A DNA stretch of 64,000 bases from an uncultured Ruminiclostridium sp. (lineage in GTDB: Bacteria > Bacillota > Clostridia > Oscillospirales > Ruminococcaceae): assembly GCA_947624435.1 (NCBI GenBank), contig CANQKE010000011.1, forward strand, positions 1 through 64,000. The letters run 5' to 3'. Both the position numbers and the translations under genes were made by a program. Positions 4,157-16,900 of the stretch are shown here, piece after piece (position 1 is the stretch's first letter; each line of letters opens with the position of its first letter). The notes beneath the pieces are model-generated. The model saw nothing but the letters and a program-made list of their open reading frames with translations, did no database searches and was not told where the DNA came from.

Positions 4157-5575
4157 ATGAAACTTACCCGTTCGCAAACCGTTGCCTTCGGTATAGGCGC
4201 AGTCGGAAAGGATATGGTATACGCCCTTTCCGCAACTTATGTAATGTATTTTTATCAGGATATACTGGGACTTTCCGCCACCTTTGTGGGACTTATCCTG
4301 ATGATAGCAAGAGTTTTTGACGCACTGAACGATCCGTTTATGGGAATACTCGTTGCAAAGACCCGCACCCGTTGAGGACGTTTCAGACCATGGCTGTTCA
4401 GCGGCACGGTGCTGAACGCTGTCGTGCTTTTTGCGCTTTTCTCCGCTCCAGACCTGAATGAAAGCGGAATGATGGTTTACTTTGCGGTCATTTATATTTT
4501 GTGGGGAACTACATACACCATGATGGATATACCCTACTGGTCGATGATACCTGCTGTTACGGAGCTTCCAAAGGACAGGGAAAATCTTTCGGTAGTGGGG
4601 CGTACCTGCGCGGGCGTAGGCTCGGCGCTTATACAGGTCGGCGCTCTCATAACGGTCACAGCGCTTGGCGGAGGAGATGAGCGCAAAGGCTTTTGCCTTA
4701 TCGCGTTGATAGTAGCCGCTATATTTATCGCCGCCGAAGTATTCTGCTGCTTTAAGGTAAAGGAACAACGCCTCGAAAAAGTAGAGACCTCAACGGTGGG
4801 ACAGATGTTCAAAGCACTTTTCCGCAACGACCAGGCACTTATAACCGTACTTGCCATACTTCTTGTGAACAGCGCCCTTTACCTCACCTCAAACCTTATC
4901 ATCTATTTCTTCAAATATGACGTGGGAGCAGTTCTTTCGGCAAACGGAGCAGGCTGGGAGGGTAATTACACCCTTTTCACTATGGTAGGCGGCGTATTCC
5001 AGATCCTCGGTATGATGGCGGTATATCCCCTTCTGCACAAAAAACTCACAAACACCGCTATTTTCAAAACCGCCCTTTCAATGGCTATCGTCGGTTATGT
5101 TCTCATACTTGGTTTTTGCCTTACGGGACTCGGCTCAAATATGGTCATTCTATGCGTATGCGGAGCGCTTGTGTTTATGAGTAACGGCATACTCACCGTC
5201 CTTACCACGGTATTCCTTTCGGGCTCGGTGGATTACGGCGAGCTTAAAACAGGCAGACGTGAGGAAAGCGTTATCTTCTCCATGCAGACCTTTGTTGTAA
5301 AGGCGGCGTCGGGAATTTCCGTTTTTATCACAGGCATAGGACTCGACCTTATCGGTCTTGAGGGAAACACTGACAACACTGGAGAAATAGTTGCTCAAAG
5401 CGCCGATACCATTATGGGGCTGCGTCTGCTGATGACCGTCCTGCCGATAATTCTTCTGGCGGTCGCATTCATCTTTTTTGTGAAGAAATTCACCCTTACC
5501 GATAAAAAGACCGAGGAGATAGCCTTGACTCTTAAAGAGAAAAAAGAACGCAGGACGGAAGAAGAAAATGCTTGA
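4157..5575 (+). pseudogene. GPH-family sugar:cation symporter interrupted by in-frame TGA
   Basis: Two pieces in the same frame, 4157-4372 and 4376-5575, form one 472-codon membrane transporter of the glycoside-pentoside-hexuronide family (MelB/XynP-like). It begins MKLTRSQTVAFGIGAVGKDM and has about 12 hydrophobic segments. Codon 73 (4373-4375) is TGA within KTRTR-*-GRFRPWL, where relatives carry Trp (RWGRFRPW or RWGKFRP). A single G-to-A change of TGG explains it. Everything downstream is intact and ends on a normal TGA overlapping the next gene by 8 bases. It may be a recent nonsense mutation, a sequence error or readthrough. An internal GTG at 4409 has no good ribosome site. Confidence 0.85.
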
Positions 5576-7163
5576 TTGGCGTATAAACATACAGACGAAA
5601 AGCGGCAGCGAGGAGTTTAACGGCAGTATAGCCCTTGCAGAACATCTTCCGCTCATTATAGAATGTGAACTGCCCCGGTGCAGGATAAACAGCGTAACTG
5701 CCGAAACCGATATTATCATCGACGACGATGAAAAGATCTTTATGAACGGCTATCAGACCTGGACGAACTGCCCCGAATACGGAAAGCCTGACAAAATAAG
5801 AGGACTTCACGGAATACCGAAATTCATTGTTGACAAATTCAGCTTTGACCGTTACGGAGATTATCATTTCGTGGATTACCCCAACAAAAAAGGAATAACT
5901 CACGGCTTTTCCTGGTGCTATTTCCGTAAGGGGAAAAAATACAGACTTTTCGCCTCCCTTGACGAGAAAAACGGCTACACTATGTTCACATATGACAGCA
6001 ACAGAGGCAGACTGAAAATAGAGCGTGACTGCAAGGGTCTTAGCTTTTGCGGGGATTTCGCCGCATTCCAGCTTTACTATGCCGAGGGAACGGAGGACGA
6101 AGTGTTTGACGGTTGGTTCAGCGCAATGGGCATACACGCCTCCGCTAAGCCTATAAGCGGTTATTCAAGCTGGTACAACCGCTACGAGGACATAAACGAA
6201 AGCGCCATAAAAGCCGACCTTGAGGGCTGCAAGAATCTGCTGTCGCCCGGCGATCTGTTCCAGATAGACGACGGCTGGGAGCCTGCGGTGGGAGACTGGC
6301 TTGAAACCGACAAGACAAAATTTCCCAATGGTCTTAAGCCTTTGTCGGATGAAATACACAGTGCGGGATTTCTTGCGGGATTATGGCTTGCGCCTTTCGT
6401 ATGCAGGAAGGGCTCCGAGCTTATGAGATCCCATCCCGACTGGCTTTTACAGGTGGACGGAAAGTCCTGGATCTGCGGCAGCAACTGGGGCGGATTTTAC
6501 TCTCTTGATATAGATAATCCGGAAGTTACCGACTATCTACGCAAAGTATTCGACGCCGTGCTGAACGACTGGGGCTTTGACCTTGTTAAGTTGGATTTTC
6601 TTTACGGCGCCGCTCCGTTCGGCACTGATAATGAAACAAGAGCAGGGCGTATGATAAGAGCTATGGACTTTCTCTGTGAGATCTGCGGCGACAAGCTGAT
6701 ACTCGGCTGCGGCGTGCCTGTTATGACAGCCTTTGGCAGAGTAGATTATTGCAGAGTAAGCTGCGATGTCAGTCTTGACTGGGACGACAAGCCGTATATG
6801 TGCTTGTTCCACCGTGAACGTGTTTCCACTAAGCAGGCGATAGAAAACACACTGTTTCGCAGCCAACTGAACGGCAGAGCATATCTCAGCGACCCGGACG
6901 TATTTTTCCTGCGGGATAACAATATCAGATTGTCCAACGACCGCAAGCTGCTGCTCGCAAAGATAAACGCCCTGTTCGGCGGAGTTTTCCTTACCTCAGA
7001 CGACCTTTCCTCTTATAACGAAGAACAGCGAAAGCTGTACCGCAGTCTTCTTCATTTGCGTGAGGCAAATGACGTGACCTTTGACCGCGACGCTTTAACT
7101 GTAACATACACCTTGGACGGAAAAAAGCACAAGCTGAGTCTGCCTAAAAAATGGTTTGGGTAA
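5568..7163 (+). CDS. Alpha-galactosidase, glycoside hydrolase family 36
   Basis: A 531-residue enzyme predicted to cleave terminal alpha-1,6-galactose from raffinose-type sugars. It has an N-terminal beta-sandwich (1-190) and a TIM barrel beginning near SSWYNRYEDI. The nucleophile is D343 in KLDFLYG and the acid/base is D400 in CDVSLDWDD. The motif DDGWEP is also typical of GH36. It is shorter than the ~720-residue classical form, lacking part of the terminal sheets. The ATG at 5568 overlaps the end of the symporter gene by 8 bases, showing translational coupling. No signal peptide is seen, so it acts on imported sugar. It ends before the leftward pPIWI-RE island. Confidence 0.88.
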   Translation: MLDWRINIQTKSGSEEFNGSIALAEHLPLIIECELPRCRINSVTAETDIIIDDDEKIFMNGYQTWTNCPEYGKPDKIRGLHGIPKFIVDKFSFDRYGDYHFVDYPNKKGITHGFSWCYFRKGKKYRLFASLDEKNGYTMFTYDSNRGRLKIERDCKGLSFCGDFAAFQLYYAEGTEDEVFDGWFSAMGIHASAKPISGYSSWYNRYEDINESAIKADLEGCKNLLSPGDLFQIDDGWEPAVGDWLETDKTKFPNGLKPLSDEIHSAGFLAGLWLAPFVCRKGSELMRSHPDWLLQVDGKSWICGSNWGGFYSLDIDNPEVTDYLRKVFDAVLNDWGFDLVKLDFLYGAAPFGTDNETRAGRMIRAMDFLCEICGDKLILGCGVPVMTAFGRVDYCRVSCDVSLDWDDKPYMCLFHRERVSTKQAIENTLFRSQLNGRAYLSDPDVFFLRDNNIRLSNDRKLLLAKINALFGGVFLTSDDLSSYNEEQRKLYRSLLHLREANDVTFDRDALTVTYTLDGKKHKLSLPKKWFG

Positions 7164-7307
7164 GCCTTGACTGTTATGATACAATAGATATGTTAAAAAA
7201 ACAGAGGTTTTCAGATAGGTATTTCTTTGTCTACAGCACCTCAGATTTTGAGCAAGCGCCTTTTGATAATTTGTTTCAAAATGACGCTTGCTTAATATTT
7301 TATCTGC

Positions 7308-9779
7308 TCACGCATCAAAAAGATACTCTTCAAGAGCTTTTGCCAAATGCAAAGGCAATGGCAGAACTGTCGACTGATTATATTGAATAAATATATGTCT
7401 CAAGGAATTTGTATAAAAAATCCAATTATCGGCATTATCGCCTGATTGTAGTTGCAGAGGATATAACTCTACCATGTCCTTTTCAGCAAATCTATGCTGC
7501 GGATGATTTATTCTTGACTCTTTGAAACTGCTTGTATAACGGGTATCATTTGGTCTTGCATTTATCCCCCAATATACATCGTCATATCTAAAGACGCCGG
7601 AAGAAGAGGAATACTGCAAATGAGTATCATCAGAGCGTTTGCTTTTATCCGTATAATAGTCTGGAACCTCCTGGTTACTTCTGATACGAATGATTCTGAC
7701 GCCGGTGTCCTCCAAAGAAATCGAATAAGGGTTTTGAGATGTACCCGCGTTGATCTGAACCGGACAATATTCGTCTGTCGTTGTATATCCGCTAATCTCC
7801 TTGTCTGAAATACCGCCCCATAAAGCCCGAGTGTTTCCGTCCGATTGGATCATAAATAATACGCCGTCGTCTTTTTTATAGTAGAGGTTTTTTAATTCTA
7901 TCAGCTTTTGTTTCGCCGGTGAACGAACGGCATTTACACAGCGTTGTTCTAAATCGGTTTTCCAAAAGAGTTGCGCCATTTCGAGACAAGCTTCCCGATA
8001 AGAAACTGTTCGTTTGTCAAACGCATCACAATGAACCTGAGTCTTCCCTTCCAAAAGATCAACTGTTACATAAATAGGAAGAAAACGAGCCTTATTTGCA
8101 ATTCCATGGATCTGTGTACATATATGCATACCAACACAAGGAGTGTTTGCCAAAGCAGGCATTTTCTTTTGGAAATTTAATAAAGTTACAACGCCTAATT
8201 GTCTGTAAAGGTCATATACGGCATTATCAACCGCATTTTGGTCTTTCCCACTCTCCGGAGCGATAAACTGTACCACCCGACCACTTCTAGCGAACGCATT
8301 CCGAAGCACCTGTTTCGGATCACCCTTTTCATAATGCTCGTGACCTGGTATAACGAAAATACAGGAAGTTACAGTATCAGCTTGTCCCAGCTCTTTGACA
8401 ATTTCTTCACACCTATTTATTTTAACTTCTAAAGAATCATCACGCATATCGTCGGCAAGCCCGCCTATCTCTTTGTGTATGCAACGGATATTCAAGCAAG
8501 ATGCTTCAGAGTTTTCTCCGAAATCCTGTTCGATTTTTTCCTGAACTTGCTTCAAAAGTTCTTGCTGATCGTGATCTTTCCATAATCCGTAAAGTTCAAA
8601 AACGATTTGATCAGTTTCGGCGCATTTATGCACCCATTTCCTAAATTCTTCACGGTCGGCATATTCCTGCGGAGAGTTAAAGGTCTGAAATTTTTGACCC
8701 TTCACTGTAACTCTGTTTGCTTCCGGTCGTTCCACTATAATGTCTCCCAGCAAATCAGCAAAAGACCGGTACAGGGACGCTTTATCAACCACAGAAACGC
8801 CTGTTCCGATTTTTGAGGCAATAAATCCTCCCATACCGTTTTTATAAGGGAGCAAAATTTGCTCCGAGTATGCCGCCGGATCTCTCAAAATATTTTCGGA
8901 CGGAGGTAATTGTTCGTACCCCCAGATATTATAACATTCCTTATCTTGTTCTTTCCAATCGATTTGCTTATCTGTACGATCATATATGATCGGAACTTGG
9001 CAGTACTTATGATCTGAAACTTTAATATGAGCATTAATACTCTCGGAAAGAAACGGCGTGCGATCTTTGTTATAATTGTCCGGTATCCATCTGCGAGTGC
9101 TTATTTGGCAAAGCAGCAAAGCTTTTCTTTGAGGAGGAGTCGTCTGTACCGAAAAATCAAACACCAAAGAATACTTATGAGAACTTTTTAGGTCTGTTAT
9201 AGGTTGACTGATCAACTGGTTCTTTGCCGAATAACAAAGATATAACGGTTGTCCGGATAAGATGATTTCCTGTTTTAATAAACGGTTGATCGCTAACAGC
9301 GGGATAGCTTGGTATGCTTCCTCACAAACAGTTCCGTTTGGAAGTGTAAGGCAAACATCCGCCTTGTCTTGAAGCTTTTCAATATCTTCGGCTTTTATAG
9401 TATTGCAAAAATCATTTGCAAGTTGTTTGACCGGATAGGATACCCGTTGAGGTACAATATATGTGGCCTTTACCCAAGCCTTAATAATTTTGCATAGAGC
9501 TTCAACATCTTCATACTTGCAAAAGGATGTCAGCCAATGCTTATCGCAGCTGTCCTTTTTCAAAGGCGACAGCGCTATGATGCCTTCCATCCAACCGTCC
9601 ATCAGTTTTTTTAGCGCATTGGTAGGAAGACCGTACTCATCTTTGAAACGGGGATTTTTTTTACGCTCGATATCCAGTAACGATTCTTTCCATGCTTTAG
9701 GAAAACCCAAATAATAGAGCGTATGGGTTTGTCCGGGAGAAAGTTTATATGCCATTGGGTAAATTTTATCGTTTTTCAT
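7308..9779 (-). CDS. pPIWI-RE protein (PIWI/RNase H-like domain)
   Basis: This 823-residue protein matches the prokaryotic PIWI family pPIWI-RE. A long N-terminal region (1-470) precedes a MID-like part (FVIPGHEH at 475-482, GDPKQVLRNAFARSGRVVQF at 486-505). The RNase H/PIWI fold covers about 548-823, with VGMHICTQ, LPIYVTVDLLEG, FMIQSDGNTRALWGG and HLAKALEEYL. The family-naming Arg and Glu are likely in VRIIRIRSNQEVP (694-706). The first beta-strand has His551 or Cys554 where a catalytic Asp would be expected, so nuclease activity is uncertain. It is last in a three-gene operon, with a 4-base overlap to the helicase. Family knowledge predicts nucleic-acid-guided defence against plasmids or phages; that role here is inferred. 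Confidence 0.85.
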   Translation of the reverse strand: MKNDKIYPMAYKLSPGQTHTLYYLGFPKAWKESLLDIERKKNPRFKDEYGLPTNALKKLMDGWMEGIIALSPLKKDSCDKHWLTSFCKYEDVEALCKIIKAWVKATYIVPQRVSYPVKQLANDFCNTIKAEDIEKLQDKADVCLTLPNGTVCEEAYQAIPLLAINRLLKQEIILSGQPLYLCYSAKNQLISQPITDLKSSHKYSLVFDFSVQTTPPQRKALLLCQISTRRWIPDNYNKDRTPFLSESINAHIKVSDHKYCQVPIIYDRTDKQIDWKEQDKECYNIWGYEQLPPSENILRDPAAYSEQILLPYKNGMGGFIASKIGTGVSVVDKASLYRSFADLLGDIIVERPEANRVTVKGQKFQTFNSPQEYADREEFRKWVHKCAETDQIVFELYGLWKDHDQQELLKQVQEKIEQDFGENSEASCLNIRCIHKEIGGLADDMRDDSLEVKINRCEEIVKELGQADTVTSCIFVIPGHEHYEKGDPKQVLRNAFARSGRVVQFIAPESGKDQNAVDNAVYDLYRQLGVVTLLNFQKKMPALANTPCVGMHICTQIHGIANKARFLPIYVTVDLLEGKTQVHCDAFDKRTVSYREACLEMAQLFWKTDLEQRCVNAVRSPAKQKLIELKNLYYKKDDGVLFMIQSDGNTRALWGGISDKEISGYTTTDEYCPVQINAGTSQNPYSISLEDTGVRIIRIRSNQEVPDYYTDKSKRSDDTHLQYSSSSGVFRYDDVYWGINARPNDTRYTSSFKESRINHPQHRFAEKDMVELYPLQLQSGDNADNWIFYTNSLRHIFIQYNQSTVLPLPLHLAKALEEYLFDA

Positions 9780-12700
9780 ATTAAAATATCCCTTCTATAA
9801 GCTATATAAAATGGTTCATACAGTGTTTTTGCAATTTCTGCGCTTTCTTCCTGTGTCATAAGAGCATCTAAATATCTTCTCAGTTCAGAAAGGCAGTTGA
9901 AATCTCCTTGCTTATCTTCGCGACCTCGGAACGCCCCGTCAATAAAATAGACATGCGGTTCAGGCTTTTTAACGTCTGTAACGCGCGCCAAGCGGCCGAA
10001 AATCTGTAAAATTAAAACAAACAGAGTGGCAACAACATCCTTGCGTTCATTATCATCCAGTTCCGCTAAACCGAACGATCTGCTTTTGCTCATTTTGCTC
10101 CACTGCCGAGTTGCAAACTGACGAACGCGTGCACTGTATGCAAACAACGATTCATTAGAATTTCGCTTGCAATTAGCCTCCACATATCCGTTAAGTTTAC
10201 TCCCTTTTTGCTGAATATCATCCGGGACCGCCATAGGGCGTACCATAAAAAACACAGCGCAAAGTGCGGAATGTCCGTATTCATCTACTATATTGTGACC
10301 GCGCTCGATTGCCATTGCGGGCGCGATTAAGATATCTTCATCCATTTCAGCGAATCGGTTGACTTCGCCGCGCCGTATCGTTCCCTCGGCGTTCTGAACG
10401 CCCTTTGCGTCAGGAATCATCCTGCAAACACGGGCAGGACAATTTGCTGTTCGTAACGCTATATCCAGTTCTTCCTTAACTGCTTGAGCCTGTATATAGC
10501 TGTTTACAACTAATAATATCTTTCCGGCCTTTCGCTCATATTCCCGAACTATAAATACGACGGTCTTTTTCGTTACGATACGCAATTGCTCCATACGTTG
10601 ATCATCTGCGGCACCTGAAACTCGCTCGGGAAAACCGGACTCAAAGAATCGTATTTTCGTCAGGAACAAACGCTTTTCTTTTTCTACTTCTAAAGTGTAA
10701 TTTACAGGACGGTTCACATGATACTCGTATGAACCTTCTGCCCAGCTTGAACCGGATAACAAAATAACATGCGGACCGGCGGGGTTTCCTTTCGCATCTG
10801 TTCTAAGGTACGGCAAATCTTTCATCAGGCTTCTGCCGAAAGCGAATTGACGGAACAAGATTATATCCTCATCTTCCGTCTTTTTTAGACCGAACAAATT
10901 ACCGCACAGGGCAGACGGGAGGAAGTACTGCTGTCGGCGAAAGCGAGTCTGTAAAAAGCCAAAAAGCTCATTTTCCCCATAATATGTCTCATGGCTAGCT
11001 TCATACGCATCACTGAGTCCTCGAATAAAGTGATCGAAATAAATCAACCTCAAGATAAGTTTTATGTGGGCATCCTGAATTCTCTTTGCGCGATCTTTTT
11101 TCGGACGTAAAAAGTCAGCGCCGAGTTCATTCAGCCATATATGATACATCTGATTGAAAAAAGAGCCATCCGTGCTTTTGCAAGAGCTCTCCAGTACTGC
11201 CCATAACGTGCTTTGCCGAATACGCTCCTCGTCTTGGACATCGATCAAGTTGTAAATAGCTTCATAAACCGACTTAGGGATCTTGTAGTCGGTTTCCTCC
11301 CGATATAGATCGTCCAATAAAGTGAGAGCTGAGAAAGGATCGCCATTTGTGATCTTTTTCCAGGAGCCCAAATCATAGTGCAAAGATTTTACAATGCAGC
11401 TCAAGACGGTCACGCTTTGGCGCTGCATCTCATCGTATCTCTGTGCAGCAGGATTTTCCTCTCTCTGCTTACTGTTCAACCTCATATATGCGCTGCAATC
11501 TTCCGCACATTCGTTGATGTAGCGATTAAAGCTTGTTTTCGGCATAAAAAGAGAGTCAAGCGTCTTCTGCGCTCTATCACACTCATCAAAGACGATCAAA
11601 TCAAATTCGCGCATTGCTAATTCTAAGAAAGTTTCCCGCACTTGACCTATACGAGATGCTGCAAAACCCGCGACCGTTGTGATCACAACGGATGAAGAAT
11701 AGCATTCCCTTAGCATCTTTGTACCGGGGCAATCATCAAAGTAAGGACATAAATGATTTTTACCGCCTTTTCTTAAAGAATAACAAGGTTCTTTCCCAAA
11801 AGGCATTGCGTCTTTGTGCTGCGCGTCCATGCCATCAATTAAACACGCCGGCGTTAAATACTTAGAAAACACTTCAGGCAAGCAGGTCTCATTGGGCTGC
11901 GCAACTTGATCGATGTATTTTAACCTTTCATTTCGTCCGATCAAAGGACTGCATGAAATACCAAATACAGACAGATATTTTTGAAAATTCAACACTTCTG
12001 CTACAGTATCAACAACAATAGCAATTCTATAATCGTTTTTATGGCACCAGAAAGAGAGGACCTTTATCAGCGTTGATTTACCGGAGCCAACCATACCTAT
12101 AATGTTGACTACTTCGCGAATAGTAAGTTCTGTACATGGTTCGACCGAGGACCCGACAATTTTCTTAAGAGTGTTTGTTTTCAAAATCTTGTAACATGGG
12201 TCATCGGGACAAATTTCAGACATTTCCTTTGCGGCGGCTAGAATTTCATCTATTGAAATTGAAATCGGCGCTCGGCAGCCTTTGTCTGAAATCGGCGGCT
12301 GTACATACTGGTCATGCTCATGGACAAAATCAACATAGACAGTTTCCGCTTCGCCGTTTTCAAGATTTGGGTATATGTATCTATATGTTCCGGTTCCCGC
12401 ATAAACGGGAGAATTTGAATCTTCAATATGCTCCGGCCAAAATTTCTCCCACTCTTTTTTACGTTTCTCGTAAGGATAAGGATATTTTTCTTCCGTTCTG
12501 AAGAAGGATAGAGCTACGTCGTTCTCTTTGAAGGAAAAAGCGCGAAACGCGTCATATCGAGAATTTCGATACTTGCAAAGATCGTCTTGCCAGTATTTTT
12601 GAGAACGATAGCATCCGAGAATATACCGTGCGCGTTGCAAAGTATGCTCCATAGCAGTACACTTTTCTGTACTGATAAGCTGATATTGAGTGAACAAAAG

Positions 12701-12853
12701 ATAAGCTTTTTTCGGATCAGCGTCGGGTGCATTCAGCGAGAGCAGGTATAAGACCGCTTCGACCGCCGCAAAACGATAAAGAGACATCGTCCCTTCCGCT
12801 TTAGGAAATTGAGCAGAAAGAGGAGCATACCACAAATTTTGATTATTTTTCAT
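9776..12853 (-). CDS. pPIWI-RE-associated DinG/XPD-type Fe-S helicase
   Basis: A 1025-residue superfamily 2 helicase. Residues 1-240 form an uncharacterised N-terminal domain, as in pPIWI-RE partners. Walker A is GMVGSGKST (253-261) and the Walker B box is DECD (423-426). Between them four cysteines, C357, C369, C375 and C384, have the spacing expected of the 4Fe-4S domain of XPD/DinG helicases. The C-terminal RecA domain includes EDILIAPAMAIERGHNI (about residue 850) and an arginine-finger-like region ILQIFGRLARV near 965. Such helicases unwind DNA or R-loops 5' to 3'. It overlaps the nuclease gene by 11 bases and the PIWI gene by 4, so all three are co-translated. Confidence 0.85.
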   Translation of the reverse strand: MKNNQNLWYAPLSAQFPKAEGTMSLYRFAAVEAVLYLLSLNAPDADPKKAYLLFTQYQLISTEKCTAMEHTLQRARYILGCYRSQKYWQDDLCKYRNSRYDAFRAFSFKENDVALSFFRTEEKYPYPYEKRKKEWEKFWPEHIEDSNSPVYAGTGTYRYIYPNLENGEAETVYVDFVHEHDQYVQPPISDKGCRAPISISIDEILAAAKEMSEICPDDPCYKILKTNTLKKIVGSSVEPCTELTIREVVNIIGMVGSGKSTLIKVLSFWCHKNDYRIAIVVDTVAEVLNFQKYLSVFGISCSPLIGRNERLKYIDQVAQPNETCLPEVFSKYLTPACLIDGMDAQHKDAMPFGKEPCYSLRKGGKNHLCPYFDDCPGTKMLRECYSSSVVITTVAGFAASRIGQVRETFLELAMREFDLIVFDECDRAQKTLDSLFMPKTSFNRYINECAEDCSAYMRLNSKQREENPAAQRYDEMQRQSVTVLSCIVKSLHYDLGSWKKITNGDPFSALTLLDDLYREETDYKIPKSVYEAIYNLIDVQDEERIRQSTLWAVLESSCKSTDGSFFNQMYHIWLNELGADFLRPKKDRAKRIQDAHIKLILRLIYFDHFIRGLSDAYEASHETYYGENELFGFLQTRFRRQQYFLPSALCGNLFGLKKTEDEDIILFRQFAFGRSLMKDLPYLRTDAKGNPAGPHVILLSGSSWAEGSYEYHVNRPVNYTLEVEKEKRLFLTKIRFFESGFPERVSGAADDQRMEQLRIVTKKTVVFIVREYERKAGKILLVVNSYIQAQAVKEELDIALRTANCPARVCRMIPDAKGVQNAEGTIRRGEVNRFAEMDEDILIAPAMAIERGHNIVDEYGHSALCAVFFMVRPMAVPDDIQQKGSKLNGYVEANCKRNSNESLFAYSARVRQFATRQWSKMSKSRSFGLAELDDNERKDVVATLFVLILQIFGRLARVTDVKKPEPHVYFIDGAFRGREDKQGDFNCLSELRRYLDALMTQEESAEIAKTLYEPFYIAYRRDILI

Positions 12854-13955
12854 GGCAAGTTCTCTCCTTTCGTGCTATTTCGGTTTTCAAGGTTTTTAAT
12901 GTCACGCATTTTACATTCTTCTGATTTGTCAACGCTCGATTAACTATCGACGTATAATTTTGTTGGTTCGCTGTATATTCGCTTGGTACAACAAAGTATC
13001 CCCTTGTATACTCGCCCTTTGGAAATCCGTTATCATTCTGAATTTTTGCGCGCAGTGTAATGGGATTACGATATGCCTTGGCGTCTATTTCCCATATTTC
13101 TCCATCGGAAAACCGAATTTCCGCATCATATTTATCCTTATACGGCCATAATACCCATTGAATATTTTTCTTTTCGCAGAAATTGACTATATCAAGTTCT
13201 AATTTTCCGGGAGCAGAAAAGTACCGCATAACTCCTTTTTTTAAGCGATAAAGTTTTTTATCGGATACATTTAATCTCATTTCATCTGTAAGAACAGGCG
13301 TAGTATCCGTACAATGCGACGAATGGCAATTGTATCCGTACTTTCCTTTTGTCATAGTCCAACCGCAGCGCGGACAGCGATAGCATTCCTCCTTTATTTC
13401 TTCATAAGCAGACCGGAGCGCCTCTGCAGCTGCCGGGTTAGACAATTTCAGAAACATTTCCCTCATATCTTCAATAGAAATAATCGGGTGCTCAATAATA
13501 TATCTTCTGAGCCTACAATATACATCCTGATCTAAAACAATCATTTTCTCATAAAGGGCGCGTTCATCCAGCCCTTCTACGATGTCGCTGTCCTGCGTTT
13601 CTAAAAATTCATAGCATTCAGAACTGGGTATATAAACATTTTCATCTCTTCGATAAGCAAAAGCGCCATAACCGTAAAAGGGTTCTTCGGCAAGATTTAG
13701 CTTTTCGATAACATCTTGATCCCATCCGGAAAACCAATCGGAGATCGGCTTAGTTATAAATTGCGCAAGAAAATGCGATTCGTCAAAGTATTGCGCGTTC
13801 CCGGCCTGATAGCTTGCAGCTAAGAACATATTCATGCCGTGTTGGAATATTTTGCTGTAGGGATACCGCGTAGGAGCGCTTTGCGATCGTTGTTCTTTTT
13901 CTATCACCCCTTTTGCGATAAAAGCAAATGCTTTCCTCAAAAATACTGCCGTCAT
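12843..13955 (-). CDS. pPIWI-RE-associated zinc-ribbon restriction-type endonuclease
   Basis: A 370-residue protein, first gene of the island. Residues 1-185 are helical without a clear motif. A zinc ribbon follows (CYRCPRC at 191-197 with C210 and C215). The C-terminal PD-(D/E)xK nuclease fold shows D277 in KYDAEIRF and D291-A-K293 in WEIDAKAY, the expected metal-binding acid and lysine. The three-gene arrangement of nuclease, Fe-S helicase and PIWI is that of pPIWI-RE modules. The ATG at 13955 has AAGGAGGATCTAAT before it, a strong ribosome site. It probably cuts the invader DNA located by its partners; this is inference from family work. Confidence 0.8.
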   Translation of the reverse strand: MTAVFLRKAFAFIAKGVIEKEQRSQSAPTRYPYSKIFQHGMNMFLAASYQAGNAQYFDESHFLAQFITKPISDWFSGWDQDVIEKLNLAEEPFYGYGAFAYRRDENVYIPSSECYEFLETQDSDIVEGLDERALYEKMIVLDQDVYCRLRRYIIEHPIISIEDMREMFLKLSNPAAAEALRSAYEEIKEECYRCPRCGWTMTKGKYGYNCHSSHCTDTTPVLTDEMRLNVSDKKLYRLKKGVMRYFSAPGKLELDIVNFCEKKNIQWVLWPYKDKYDAEIRFSDGEIWEIDAKAYRNPITLRAKIQNDNGFPKGEYTRGYFVVPSEYTANQQNYTSIVNRALTNQKNVKCVTLKTLKTEIARKERTCHEK

Positions 13956-13980
13956 ATTAGATCCTCCTTGTGCGTAAAGA

Positions 13981-14090
13981 AAATATAAAAACGGCTCTCC
14001 AAAATGTACAGGAGAGCCGTTAAGCTACAATACGATCAATTATATTCACCGTAATACAGTGAAATCAATATCTTTACTTTTCTCGTGTAC
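13981..14090 (-). ncRNA. Terminated leader or ~110-nt small RNA upstream of the pPIWI-RE operon
   Basis: A consensus promoter predicts a leftward start near 14090. Only ~70 bases later a perfect 11-bp stem (AACGGCTCTCC at 13990-14000, GGAGAGCCGTT at 14011-14021, 10-base loop) is followed on the minus strand by TTTTTATATTTT, a textbook intrinsic terminator. The nuclease ATG lies 34 bases beyond it. The product would be an RNA of about 110 nt, with full-length mRNA made only on read-through. A second small hairpin (TTCAC/GTGAA, about 14048-14066) precedes the terminator. No reading frame is evident. It could be an attenuator or an RNA used by the system. Confidence 0.6.
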
Positions 14091-14096
14091 AAGTAT

Positions 14097-14125
14097 ATTA
14101 TAATCCGATATCCGCGAATTGTCAA
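14097..14125 (-). promoter_or_regulatory. Consensus sigma-70 promoter of the pPIWI-RE operon
   Basis: On the minus strand TTGACA (14125-14120) and TATAAT (14102-14097) are both perfect and exactly 17 bases apart. The promoter lies between the terminator of the ABC operon (14186-14237) and the leader terminator (13990-14021). Confidence 0.85.
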
Positions 14126-14185
14126 TAGCAAATGTTAAATTTTTCTGTTTGTGAAAGTTGACTCTGCAAATCAAAAAATTACAAC

Positions 14186-14237
14186 AAAAACGCTCCCGAG
14201 CAATCGTCGAAAGCGTCGATTTCGTAGGAGCGTTTTT
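14186..14237 (-). terminator. Intrinsic terminator of the sigma/ABC operon
   Basis: AAAAACGCTCC (14186-14196) pairs with GGAGCGTTTTT (14227-14237). The loop contains a smaller self-complementary stretch. On the minus strand a T-run follows, just past the last permease gene. Confidence 0.75.
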
Positions 14238-14265
14238 ATTATCCGTTTCCCTATCGCCGCACAGC

Positions 14266-15564
14266 TTAATTTTTCACCTGCCAGCGGCGGAAAACGACAA
14301 ACGACAGCGTCGACGTTATCAAAAATATCACCGCCGCGATAAGGATGATTGCAAGGCTGTCGGTCATGATAAAGCCGAAAACATCATACAGATCAGCAAA
14401 TTCTCCGCTGCCGGCGTTACCGGTAAGCATTCCACCCGGCATCAGAACGGAGATGACCCTTATCGGCTCGACCTCGCTAAGCAGCATGATAAACGGCTGT
14501 ATCAGCAGCACCGCGCCTATTACAAAGGCGGCTATGCGGCTTTTGGAAAGCGTGGAGATAAGCATCACTATCCCGCAAAGATAAAACGCCGCCAGCAATG
14601 ATATTCCCAGAGTGCAAAGCGTTGCTTGCAGATTTGTCATATAATAAGGCAATGACAGCATGCCGTAAGCGCTGTTTGCCCCGTAAAACCCGTACACCGA
14701 AAAGATCATCACCGCGTTTACCAGCTCGAACAGCAGCCACATTACCGCCGTATAGGTAAAACCGGCAAGCACCTTTGCGGTCACCGCGCGGCTCTTTCCG
14801 TACCGCGACGACAGTATCAGCGAATCGGTATGCCTTATCCTTTCTATCGCAAACAGTGAGGAAATGCCGATGATTATCACCATTCCCAAAAGCGGAGCAA
14901 GCGTGTCGTGCGCAGTCGACAGAAAATATTCCCATCCCTTATCATAATCCGTTACATAGTCGTGGGCGAGAAAATCGGCATACAGCTTTTCCCACCGAGC
15001 TTTTACCGCGCCGTCGGTATCGGCTGTTTTTTCATTAAAGGTATCAATAACCGTTTTACGTTCCGAAAGCGCGGTAACGACGGCGTTTCGCTGTTCTATC
15101 ATGGACTGCCATTCATAGCTTTCTCTTGCCGCGGCGGTCATGCGCTCGTAAGGGTCGTTGTATCTTTCGATAAAAAAGGAAATATCGGCGCGCTCGCTGT
15201 ACTCCTCCTCGGTCATATCCGGATAAAAGCCCCGCTTGTAATTGTCGATAAATTCATCCAGCTCCGTTTGCGCCGCCTGCTTTACCTGCTCATCGGTAAG
15301 CATATTTTCGGGGCGCAGCGAAAATTCCTCCATCTGCTTATCTATATTCTCTACCGTTTCATCGCTGACAGCTCCCGCTATCGCGTGGACGCTGTCCCTT
15401 TCCAATAAGTGGTCGTCTTTATATGACAGCCACGAGCTTATTCCCCCGTAGCCGAAAAGTATCATGAATATATCGGTCATCAATGCCAGAACAAGCACTC
15501 CGAGGGTAAGCCGCGACAAAAACAGCTTTTTAAGTTCGTATTTATATATTCTCATAACTATCAA
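14266..15564 (-). CDS. ABC-2 type transporter permease
   Basis: A 432-residue membrane protein. One N-terminal helix (FLSRLTLGVLVLALMTDIFM) is followed by a large extracytoplasmic domain (about 40-215) and then five or so hydrophobic segments, the layout of ABC-2 permeases that export peptides or resist antimicrobials. AAAGGAG lies 6 bases before the TTG at 15564; ATG at 15555 is an alternative start. It is the last gene of the sigma - membrane protein - ATPase - permease - permease operon, and its N-terminus (YELKKLFLSRLTL) resembles that of the preceding permease, so the two probably form a heterodimer. The substrate is unknown. Confidence 0.8.
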   Translation of the reverse strand: MIVMRIYKYELKKLFLSRLTLGVLVLALMTDIFMILFGYGGISSWLSYKDDHLLERDSVHAIAGAVSDETVENIDKQMEEFSLRPENMLTDEQVKQAAQTELDEFIDNYKRGFYPDMTEEEYSERADISFFIERYNDPYERMTAAARESYEWQSMIEQRNAVVTALSERKTVIDTFNEKTADTDGAVKARWEKLYADFLAHDYVTDYDKGWEYFLSTAHDTLAPLLGMVIIIGISSLFAIERIRHTDSLILSSRYGKSRAVTAKVLAGFTYTAVMWLLFELVNAVMIFSVYGFYGANSAYGMLSLPYYMTNLQATLCTLGISLLAAFYLCGIVMLISTLSKSRIAAFVIGAVLLIQPFIMLLSEVEPIRVISVLMPGGMLTGNAGSGEFADLYDVFGFIMTDSLAIILIAAVIFLITSTLSFVVFRRWQVKN

Positions 15565-15589
15565 ACATCACTCCTTTCGGGTTTTAACC

Positions 15590-16900
15590 TCACGCCGCGG
15601 GACGTCTGTTCTTATGGGAAATATAGCAGCCGACGGTCATTATAACGCCTGCCGCCAGCGCGACGGGTATCAAAAGATACTGCATAGGCAGCGCATTCCC
15701 GAAGATATACACAAGGTCGAATCTTTCCCATTCCGTAACGGACGCCAGCATTCTCGGCGGGAAAAAGTCAAGCACTCTCTCCATAAAGCTGTCCTCACCG
15801 AACAGGTAGATATACACCAGTCCCACCGACGGTATCAGGGTAAGCACGCCGGAAATTATCAGCGTTACATACTGCCCCTTGCACAAAGCGCCCACAAGCA
15901 TTATCATAGCCGCCGACATCATCGCTCCGACAAAGGACGTCAAAACGACAAGTCCGGTCGCCTGCAATTGATTTAACATATACGGCACCCTCGGCAGATC
16001 AAGTTGTATCATCGTTTCCGCTCCGTCAAGGCCGAACACCGCGGCGGTATAAATAAACGCGATAAGCTCCATTAACGCCCAAATCCCCGCCGCAAAGATA
16101 AATCCGGCGCAAATTTTATGACGGGTCAGCTTTCCTCTGCCGTGACGCGAGCAGGCTATCACGCTTTCGGTGCCGCGCGCACGGTCAAGGGTAAACAGCG
16201 GCGACAACGCTATCACCAGCATTAGTCCCACAAACATCGGGAACAGGCGGTGTATCCCTCTGTAATTCCACCATCCGGTATCGTAATCATAGTACCATGT
16301 GACGTTCTCTGAAAGATCGGTATACATATCCCCGACCAGCTTTGCGAACGCCTCTCCCTTTTCACCGGGATAATCCTCGCGGTAGCTGTCGGCAAGCTCT
16401 GCGTATTTCGCCATTCGCTCGGAATAAGGGATAAATTCATCGGAATCGGTCTGCATCAAGCCGAACATCATATTTACTTCTACTAAAACTCTCTCTTCGG
16501 GAAAGGTGTAAAAATCCTTACTGATATAATACCGGTCTTTTTGCATAGCTTCTATCTCGTCTTCGCTGTAACCGTCGGCACGCCACTTTTCCTTGAGCCG
16601 CTCTATCTCCTCATCGGTCTTGAGATTGGCGGGATCGTTGATATACGCGTTATATTCCGCAAGAACATTGTCGTACCATTCCTGCGTCATTTCGCCCGCG
16701 TATTGTTTTGTTTCCTTAAGCGTTCTTAAATATCTGAAATTATCGTCCTTGCCGTACGGGTCGCCGATTATGCTGCAAGGCTCATGCCCTACGTTTCCCA
16801 GCAGCAGCATGTATATCTCCAGCAATATAAGTATCGCGCCGGAAATAAGCGTCAGCTTTGATTTTAGCAGCTTTTTAAGTTCAAACTTCAGTATAGTCAT
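15590..16900 (-). CDS. ABC-2 type transporter permease
   Basis: A 436-residue membrane protein with the same layout as its downstream neighbour: N-terminal helix, large soluble loop (about 40-235), then several hydrophobic segments. It begins MTILKFELKKLLKSKLTL. The ATG at 16900 is chosen because GAGGAAAGCGCAG precedes it; the gene then overlaps the end of the ATPase gene by 20 bases, implying translational coupling. It would form the membrane channel of the ATPase encoded just upstream. The substrate is not identifiable from sequence. Confidence 0.8.
   Translation of the reverse strand: MTILKFELKKLLKSKLTLISGAILILLEIYMLLLGNVGHEPCSIIGDPYGKDDNFRYLRTLKETKQYAGEMTQEWYDNVLAEYNAYINDPANLKTDEEIERLKEKWRADGYSEDEIEAMQKDRYYISKDFYTFPEERVLVEVNMMFGLMQTDSDEFIPYSERMAKYAELADSYREDYPGEKGEAFAKLVGDMYTDLSENVTWYYDYDTGWWNYRGIHRLFPMFVGLMLVIALSPLFTLDRARGTESVIACSRHGRGKLTRHKICAGFIFAAGIWALMELIAFIYTAAVFGLDGAETMIQLDLPRVPYMLNQLQATGLVVLTSFVGAMMSAAMIMLVGALCKGQYVTLIISGVLTLIPSVGLVYIYLFGEDSFMERVLDFFPPRMLASVTEWERFDLVYIFGNALPMQYLLIPVALAAGVIMTVGCYISHKNRRPAA

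What the first reader, a model, noticed from the sequence alone, without database searches (positions are those of the whole stretch)
7308..13955. Complete pPIWI-RE three-gene defence island
Nuclease, Fe-S helicase and PIWI/RNase H genes overlap (11 and 4 bases) in an AT-richer block placed between a sugar operon and an ABC operon. Seen directly: zinc ribbon plus D277/D291-K293 nuclease motif, Walker A and DECD with four cysteines, and PIWI-type MID and RNase H motifs. Known: pPIWI-RE modules are prokaryotic Argonaute-like systems predicted to target invading DNA. Inferred: this one works as a guided nuclease. It is a rarely studied family.
Basis: partly seen in the sequence, partly recalled or inferred. 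Interest (0 to 1): 0.85.

Follow-up and report, generated by a model that had tools for sequence, protein, structure and literature searches.

The report
PIWI defence island with RNA switch
A bacterium carries a compact set of three genes (a cutting enzyme, an unwinding enzyme and an Argonaute-like protein) thought to attack foreign DNA, and in front of it lies a short conserved RNA that looks like an on/off switch, which may be how such a risky system is kept quiet until needed.

Summary
In detail: window 7308-13955 (minus strand) holds an intact REase–DinG–PIWI operon of the known pPIWI-RE family. Two corrections, one addition. (1) The PIWI protein is probably no nuclease: the first RNase H aspartate is absent and the third position is Gln; cutting should come from the REase (E253, D277, D291, K293 in 12 of 12 aligned homologues). 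(2) The island is a discrete, rare insert: relative G031 has both flanks without it; 6 of 394 genomes of the order carry the family. (3) New: a leader between a consensus promoter and the REase gene. A nearly invariant 16-nt box at the predicted RNA 5' end can pair with the 5' arm of a downstream terminator, a transcription-attenuator layout. The exact 16-mer had 5 hits in 394 genomes, all at these islands. Of three islands found later, the two closer ones had it, the distant one not. Eight of 8 leaders fold as antiterminator when truncated, as terminator when complete. Compensatory changes support the terminator, not the antiterminator, which hardly varies. Defence, guide use and the switch's signal are inferred.

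The parts
12843..13955 (-). REase gene (370 aa): Y helical region (weak match), zinc ribbon C194/C197/C210/C215, PD-(D/E)xK core E253, D277, D291, K293
9776..12853 (-). DinG-like helicase gene (1025 aa): pPIWI_RE_Z domain, Walker A K259, four FeS-type cysteines 337/357/369/375, DECD 423-426, GRxxR 953-957
7308..9779 (-). pPIWI-RE gene (823 aa): X, MID and RNase H domains; D487, P488, R493, R698, R700, E771 invariant; first catalytic Asp absent
14097..14125 (-). promoter TTGACA-17-TATAAT, 12 of 12 consensus matches
   Evidence: similar layout upstream of the other leaders
14076..14091 (-). box TGTACACGAGAAAAGT at the predicted RNA 5' end; identical in 7 of 8 leaders, one change in the eighth
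13987..14091 (-). leader RNA: box, variable middle stem, terminator hairpin, U run; predicted transcription attenuator
13991..14020 (-). terminator-type hairpin whose 5' arm and loop (CTCTCCTGTACA) are largely complementary to the box; its 10-nt loop kept it off the scan list
7251..7292 (-). inverted repeat AGCAAGCG/CGCTTGCT just 3' of the PIWI gene, probable operon terminator and left edge of the insert (read by eye)
7251..14200 (.). whole insert: absent in relative G031, where about 56 unaligned bases stand in its place; right edge lies between about 14180 and 14217 (read by eye from the junctions)

Best explanation
A horizontally moving three-protein restriction system of the pPIWI-RE family. 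The PIWI protein holds a short guide or an RNA-DNA hybrid but does not cut; the DinG-like helicase opens or moves along the R-loop; the REase cuts the DNA. Expression is gated by a cis-acting RNA switch: transcription starts at a strong promoter, the RNA's first ~16 nt pair with the terminator's 5' arm (antiterminator, read-through), and when this pairing is lost or prevented the terminator forms and transcription stops before the REase start codon. Shown here: gene content, intact REase and helicase motifs, missing PIWI catalytic residue, an empty site, leader conservation and specificity, terminator covariation, mutually exclusive predicted folds. Inferred: guide use, R-loop targeting, anti-invader role, that attenuation happens in cells, and what signal sets it.
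For: Profiles and gene order. REase and helicase residues conserved down to about 20-28% identity. PIWI catalytic residues missing, while D487, P488, R493 (MID) and R698, R700, E771 are invariant in 12 of 12. Patchy distribution: 6 of 394, 2 of 398, 2 of 396, 4 of 240 genomes, own genome in each count. Empty site in G031. Defence-type or mobile neighbours in four of seven other hosts: HsdR-like protein; Fic and a DNA methylase; DEAD/MZB helicase; phage integrase. Leader: exact 16-mer in 5 of 394 genomes, the five PIWI-RE genomes whose island upstream DNA is held (against 36); box identity 0.98 and inner terminator arm plus loop 0.93, against 0.51 in the middle and 0.60 in the outer arm; terminator 97.9% of cells paired, 5 of 12 pairs with changes on both sides, 0 of 500 shuffles as high; antiterminator fold when truncated in 8 of 8, terminator fold when complete in 8 of 8; of three islands found afterwards the two with 51-78% identical proteins carry it.
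Against: Covariation does not support the antiterminator: shuffles reach the observed values in 144 to 313 of 500 (242 of 500 with six sequences), because the paired stretches hardly vary. In the box-shuffle control three of eight leaders are weak (An120 36, L004 59, G1212 22 of 300). With the ribosome-binding region added, the best fold of one of six leaders (G292) keeps the antiterminator instead of the terminator. TGTACA is self-complementary, so a repeated DNA operator would also give pairing. Distant islands (7 of 7) lack the leader, so it is not a family-wide feature. I saw no phage challenge of a pPIWI-RE island in print; the only knock-out seen showed ciprofloxacin sensitivity (PMC10991935). 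PIWI fold not confirmed independently: model pLDDT 32.5, no meaningful PDB profile match. In three of seven other hosts the neighbours looked at are not defence genes (L087).
Confidence: 0.55

Rival explanations
1. The box and its second copy are a DNA operator: an unknown repressor binds TGTACA sites at the start site and in the hairpin, and the hairpin is only an insulating terminator.
For: The box lies at the predicted transcription start, a usual repressor position; TGTACA is palindromic; box bases not needed for pairing (C7, A12-A14) are also invariant; antiterminator covariation not significant.
Against: Beyond TGTACA, the GAG(A) stretch of the box is complementary to the terminator arm while the outer arm changes with compensation. 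The motif (17 nt) occurs once in the genome at up to 2 mismatches, so a host regulon is unlikely; no HTH family appeared among the Pfam matches of the three proteins.
Confidence: 0.25
2. The island is a replication or R-loop stress module rather than a defence system.
For: P. stutzeri wild type survived ciprofloxacin about 15 times better than the piwi-re knock-out, which filaments (PMC10991935, three of four parts read); DinG-type helicases act on R-loops (PMC3702460).
Against: Rare and patchy presence, an empty site, lower GC and defence or integrase neighbours in four of seven other hosts fit an accessory unit better.
Confidence: 0.2
3. Abortive response: guided recognition by PIWI triggers the REase to destroy DNA in the whole cell, which is why expression is held down by the leader.
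For: Catalytically dead PIWI plus a separate effector is the layout of short pAgo systems (recalled); tight expression control would fit a toxic effector (inference).
Against: A helicase partner points to processing of a defined target; nothing here tests cell death.
Confidence: 0.2
4. The leader transcript is itself the guide or a scaffold RNA for the PIWI protein.
For: Discrete predicted RNA of 101-130 nt with a nearly invariant 5' end next to the gene of a predicted 5'-end-binding protein.
Against: No other site in the genome matches the motif at up to 2 mismatches on either strand, and the two exact viral hits lie inside long open frames without promoter or hairpin, one terminase-like by eye; 7 of 7 distant islands lack it.
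Confidence: 0.06

Closest known systems
pPIWI-RE three-gene islands (Burroughs et al. 2013, PMC3702460; abstract and section on the bacterial family read)
   Same: Gene order REase, DinG helicase, PIWI; overlapping ends; X-MID-RNase H, Z-helicase and Y-ZnR-REase architectures; patchy distribution
   Different: No HTH family matched in the REase protein; PIWI lacks catalytic residues (true of many members, as that paper says); a conserved attenuator-like leader that the sections I read do not mention
PsPIWI-RE of Pseudomonas stutzeri (PMC10991935; parts 1-3 of 4 read)
   Same: Same family and gene cluster; PIWI gene starts 4 nt inside the dinG end, as here
   Different: Active RNA-guided DNase with D525 and D610; the window protein has M551/H552 and Q645 at the matching places by motif and spacing (the PsPIWI-RE sequence itself was not in hand)
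Short prokaryotic Argonautes (recalled)
   Same: Catalytically dead PIWI with a separate effector
   Different: Different N-terminal part, DinG helicase partner, REase core
Leader-terminator attenuators such as T-box or trp-type (recalled)
   Same: A leader segment pairs with the terminator 5' arm, mutually exclusive with the terminator
   Different: No Rfam match; no conserved leader peptide or aptamer-like middle seen by eye; gates an Argonaute-like operon

Membership tests
pPIWI-RE three-gene system | REase, DinG helicase, PIWI in this order with overlapping or close ends | tested here: met
   overlaps 11 and 4 nt
pPIWI-RE three-gene system | X, MID and RNase H domains in the PIWI protein | tested here: met
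   all over Pfam cut-off
pPIWI-RE three-gene system | Absolutely conserved R and E | tested here: met
   R698, R700 and E771 invariant in 12 of 12; which R is the defining one is inferred from spacing, as the reference sequence was not in hand
pPIWI-RE three-gene system | DinG-type helicase with Cys-rich FeS region and Z domain | tested here: met
   pPIWI_RE_Z 1.5e-11, PprDinG 1.1e-93, four Cys invariant in 12 of 12
pPIWI-RE three-gene system | Y domain, zinc ribbon and REase fold in the first gene | tested here: met
   Y domain only 0.0015, below cut-off; fold model too poor to add support
pPIWI-RE three-gene system | RNase H catalytic residues (kept only in a subset of the family, so not a membership criterion) | tested here: not met
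   first Asp absent, third position Gln
pPIWI-RE three-gene system | Guide binding and restriction of invading DNA | not testable with these tools
   predicted in PMC3702460; needs experiment
Transcription attenuator | Terminator-type hairpin and U run between promoter and first gene, kept by compensatory change | tested here: met
   5 of 12 pairs changed on both sides, 0 of 500 shuffles as high
Transcription attenuator | Alternative antiterminator pairing that excludes the terminator | tested here: inconclusive
   8 of 8 fold so when truncated; no significant covariation; 3 of 8 weak against shuffles
Transcription attenuator | Termination and read-through in response to a signal | not testable with these tools
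   needs transcription assays
Known Rfam leader families | Match to a covariance model | tested here: not met
   window 6000-16000, no match at E up to 1

The most novel reading that the evidence does not exclude
The PIWI protein regulates its own operon through the leader: its MID domain captures the RNA's nearly invariant 5' end as if it were a guide (the UGUACA stretch standing about where an Argonaute seed would), which keeps the box from forming the antiterminator and shuts the operon; when PIWI is loaded with invader-derived guides the box is free and the operon is read through. This would be an Argonaute-family protein that senses its guide supply by a riboregulator.
Probability: 0.08. 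Interest if true: 0.88.

Novelty: new variant of a known kind. Interest (0 to 1): 0.58.

Why it matters
pPIWI-RE islands were described in 2013, and I saw only one member with biochemistry. How cells keep a cutter, an unwinder and a guide-binding protein from acting on their own DNA is open. A leader that was found only at these islands, is kept where the proteins are only 51-57% identical, and is shaped like a transcription switch gives a cheap, testable handle on when the system is turned on. The missing PIWI catalytic residue separates recognition from cutting in this clade.

Tried and rejected
Phages and plasmids for relatives of the window PIWI protein at E 1e-5: none; IMG/VR by pattern scan: none confirmed. 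The two exact motif hits in viral contigs lie inside long open frames without promoter or hairpin and are taken as chance. A conserved leader peptide was looked for by eye in the leaders and not seen. A tRNA or integrase beside the window island: no tRNA in the window, no integrase among the flanking proteins that I scanned (six of the window's). Structure route: PIWI model pLDDT 32.5 and REase model 49.1, both from 3-row alignments, are too poor, so no fold search was run; the REase model's strand/helix order around D277 and D291 is compatible with an REase core but carries no weight. PDB sequence searches: single proteins none or chance; profiles gave chance hits for PIWI and P-loop matches for the helicase. 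NCBIfam: nothing for PIWI and REase, weak P-loop matches and a weak YoaA match (0.0068) for the helicase. RNAalifold on the six complete leaders predicted the terminator only, neither the middle stem nor the antiterminator. Rows dropped: G122 from leader counts because its 4398-bp contig starts inside the helicase gene; L005 from leader counts because it is a decayed island; L004's PIWI row; G1312 from the residue alignments (found later).
Full report
What is there. Three overlapping genes on the minus strand encode a 370-aa REase-type protein, a 1025-aa DinG-like helicase and an 823-aa PIWI protein; the overlaps are 11 and 4 nt. Pfam and PADLOC assign all three to the pPIWI-RE system. The gene order, the overlapping ends and the domain make-up are those described by Burroughs et al. 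2013 (PMC3702460; abstract and the section on the bacterial family read).

Active sites. In an alignment of 12 REase proteins (window, G018, G209, G292, L004, An120, G511, three Nostoc, Bradyrhizobium, Calothrix) E253, D277, D291, K293 and the four zinc-ribbon cysteines are kept in all. In 12 helicases the Walker A lysine K259, D423-E424 and D426, four cysteines (337, 357, 369, 375) and G953-R954/R957 are invariant. In the PIWI protein the RNase H domain is present but its first aspartate is not: the strand reads C-V-G-M-H-I in the window, and none of 12 aligned members has Asp there. The third position is Q645 in the window, with D647 two residues further on; the six close members have Q or R there, the six distant ones D or E. 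D487, P488, R493, R698, R700, E704 and E771 are invariant in 12 of 12 (a partly different set of 12). Huang et al. 2022 (PMC10991935; parts 1-3 of 4 read) found D525 and D610 needed for cleavage by PsPIWI-RE and R639/E718 not needed; its sequence was not in hand, so the mapping is by motif and spacing. I conclude that this clade's PIWI is probably a binder and not a cutter.

Insert and distribution. The own genome has one copy. Matches over the Pfam cut-off: 2 of 60 relatives (both in the genus), 6 of 394 in the order, 2 of 398 in the phylum, 2 of 396 in the family, 4 of 240 in the class; the own genome is in each count and the draws overlap. A close relative, G018, has the island behind the same alpha-galactosidase gene (90.3% over window 4386-14144) but with another right flank. 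G031, which has no match to the family, has the end of a broken alpha-galactosidase gene followed after about 56 unaligned bases by the ABC operon that flanks the island here (93.9% over 14218-16812), without the island. G005 and G029 have the alpha-galactosidase gene (89-90%) with no island and yet another right flank. Island GC is 41.3% against about 50% around it. One to three neighbouring genes were scanned in seven other hosts: four have an HsdR-like protein (G209), Fic and a DNA methylase (G292), a DEAD/MZB helicase (An120) or a phage integrase (G1212); G1334 has an AAA/DUF4143 protein, L004 a glycosyl hydrolase and G018 a WYL-domain protein. Distant members sit on plasmids, mostly of cyanobacteria: 7 records by PIWI and 20 by helicase; five of these stretches were read.

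The leader. Upstream of the REase gene lies a promoter matching the consensus at 12 of 12 positions, then, 5 nt after the -10 box, TGTACACGAGAAAAGT, then about 50-80 variable bases with an internal stem, then a hairpin with a U run, then the ribosome-binding site. Six islands gave the first alignment. The exact 16-mer was then sought in 394 genomes of the order, a draw that contains all six PIWI-RE genomes: five hits, all at the five islands whose upstream DNA is held; the sixth genome, G122, has a contig that begins inside the helicase gene; the backwards-pattern control gave none. The own genome has a single site for the 17-nt form even with 2 mismatches. Small added draws gave only the known islands (1 of 25 and 1 of 4 genomes). 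A later class search produced three new islands: G1334 (70-78% identical proteins) and G1212 (51-57%) carry the leader, G1312 (21-27%) does not; nor do the G511, three Nostoc, Bradyrhizobium and Calothrix islands, so 7 of 7 distant ones lack it by a search for three partial forms of the box. The box is identical in 7 of 8 leaders; G1212 differs at position 15. A decayed island, L005, has a decayed leader.

Why an attenuator. The box can pair with the terminator's 5' arm and loop: six pairs UGUACA/UGUACA, one mismatch, then GAG(A)/(U)CUC. Nine core pairs are present in 8 of 8 leaders. Folded without the 3' arm, 8 of 8 leaders form this helix; folded to the U run, 8 of 8 form the terminator. Mean pairwise identity is 0.98 in the box, 0.93 in the inner arm plus loop, 0.60 in the outer 5' arm and 0.51 in the middle: the part of the terminator that must match the box is nearly frozen, the rest drifts with compensation (5 of 12 pairs with changes on both sides, 0 of 500 shuffles as high). 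The window leader is more stable than its shuffles, z -4.71.

Against. The antiterminator itself shows no significant covariation, and RNAalifold on complete leaders shows the terminator only. Shuffling the box still gives as many box-arm pairs in 5, 5, 2, 3, 36, 59, 8 and 22 of 300 trials for window, G018, G209, G292, An120, L004, G1334 and G1212; a duplex test on the first six gave box shuffles as good in 0 to 5.2% of trials. With the ribosome-binding region added, G292, one of six, folds best as antiterminator. The terminator scan did not list the window hairpin because its loop is 10 nt (limit 8). Rfam has no match.

How it may work. Best reading: PIWI recognises, DinG opens, REase cuts; the leader limits expression. 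The start site, predicted from the -10 box, lies within the first few bases of the box; if it lay at A4 the TGT would not be transcribed and the helix would be shorter. The signal is unknown. Bases of the box that need not pair (C7, A12-A14) are also invariant, which suggests recognition by a protein or a DNA-level role; the boldest candidate is the PIWI protein itself, a 5'-end binder by family prediction (PMC3702460).

Literature. Searches of the held library listed no paper that I recognised as reporting a leader, attenuator or riboregulator at pPIWI-RE islands; these were capped listings, and subscription papers and preprints are not held. For PMC7641849, PMC11981726 and PMC10573157 I saw passages only; the review PMC10573157 lists PIWI-RE as one of three classes of prokaryotic Argonaute-type proteins.

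Verdict. The added value is the catalytically deficient PIWI, the empty site and above all the island-specific leader.

Noticed in passing
L005:157-3220: A decayed pPIWI-RE island with a broken operon and a decayed box and hairpin, in an uncultured Eubacteriales MAG.
   Followed up: partly
L004:10001-12466: PIWI gene with an in-frame stop at codon 154 in an otherwise complete island with an intact leader.
   Followed up: no
L038 (G031:C148), matching window 6693-7253: The alpha-galactosidase gene next to the empty site is broken in this relative.
   Followed up: partly
L082:7835-12796: Bradyrhizobium elkanii plasmid: the PIWI-RE gene behind REase and helicase is annotated as one very large gene (record 243023-252325, about 3100 codons), far longer than other members.
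   Followed up: no
L080:3670-4938: Nostoc plasmid island whose REase gene is annotated as a MerR-type regulator, suggesting a fused DNA-binding domain where the window clade has the RNA leader instead.
   Followed up: partly
window 14185-14240: The ABC operon's terminator next to the island shares its sequence core with the hairpin at the different right flank of G018, possibly a repeated terminator that helped insertion or rearrangement.
   Followed up: no
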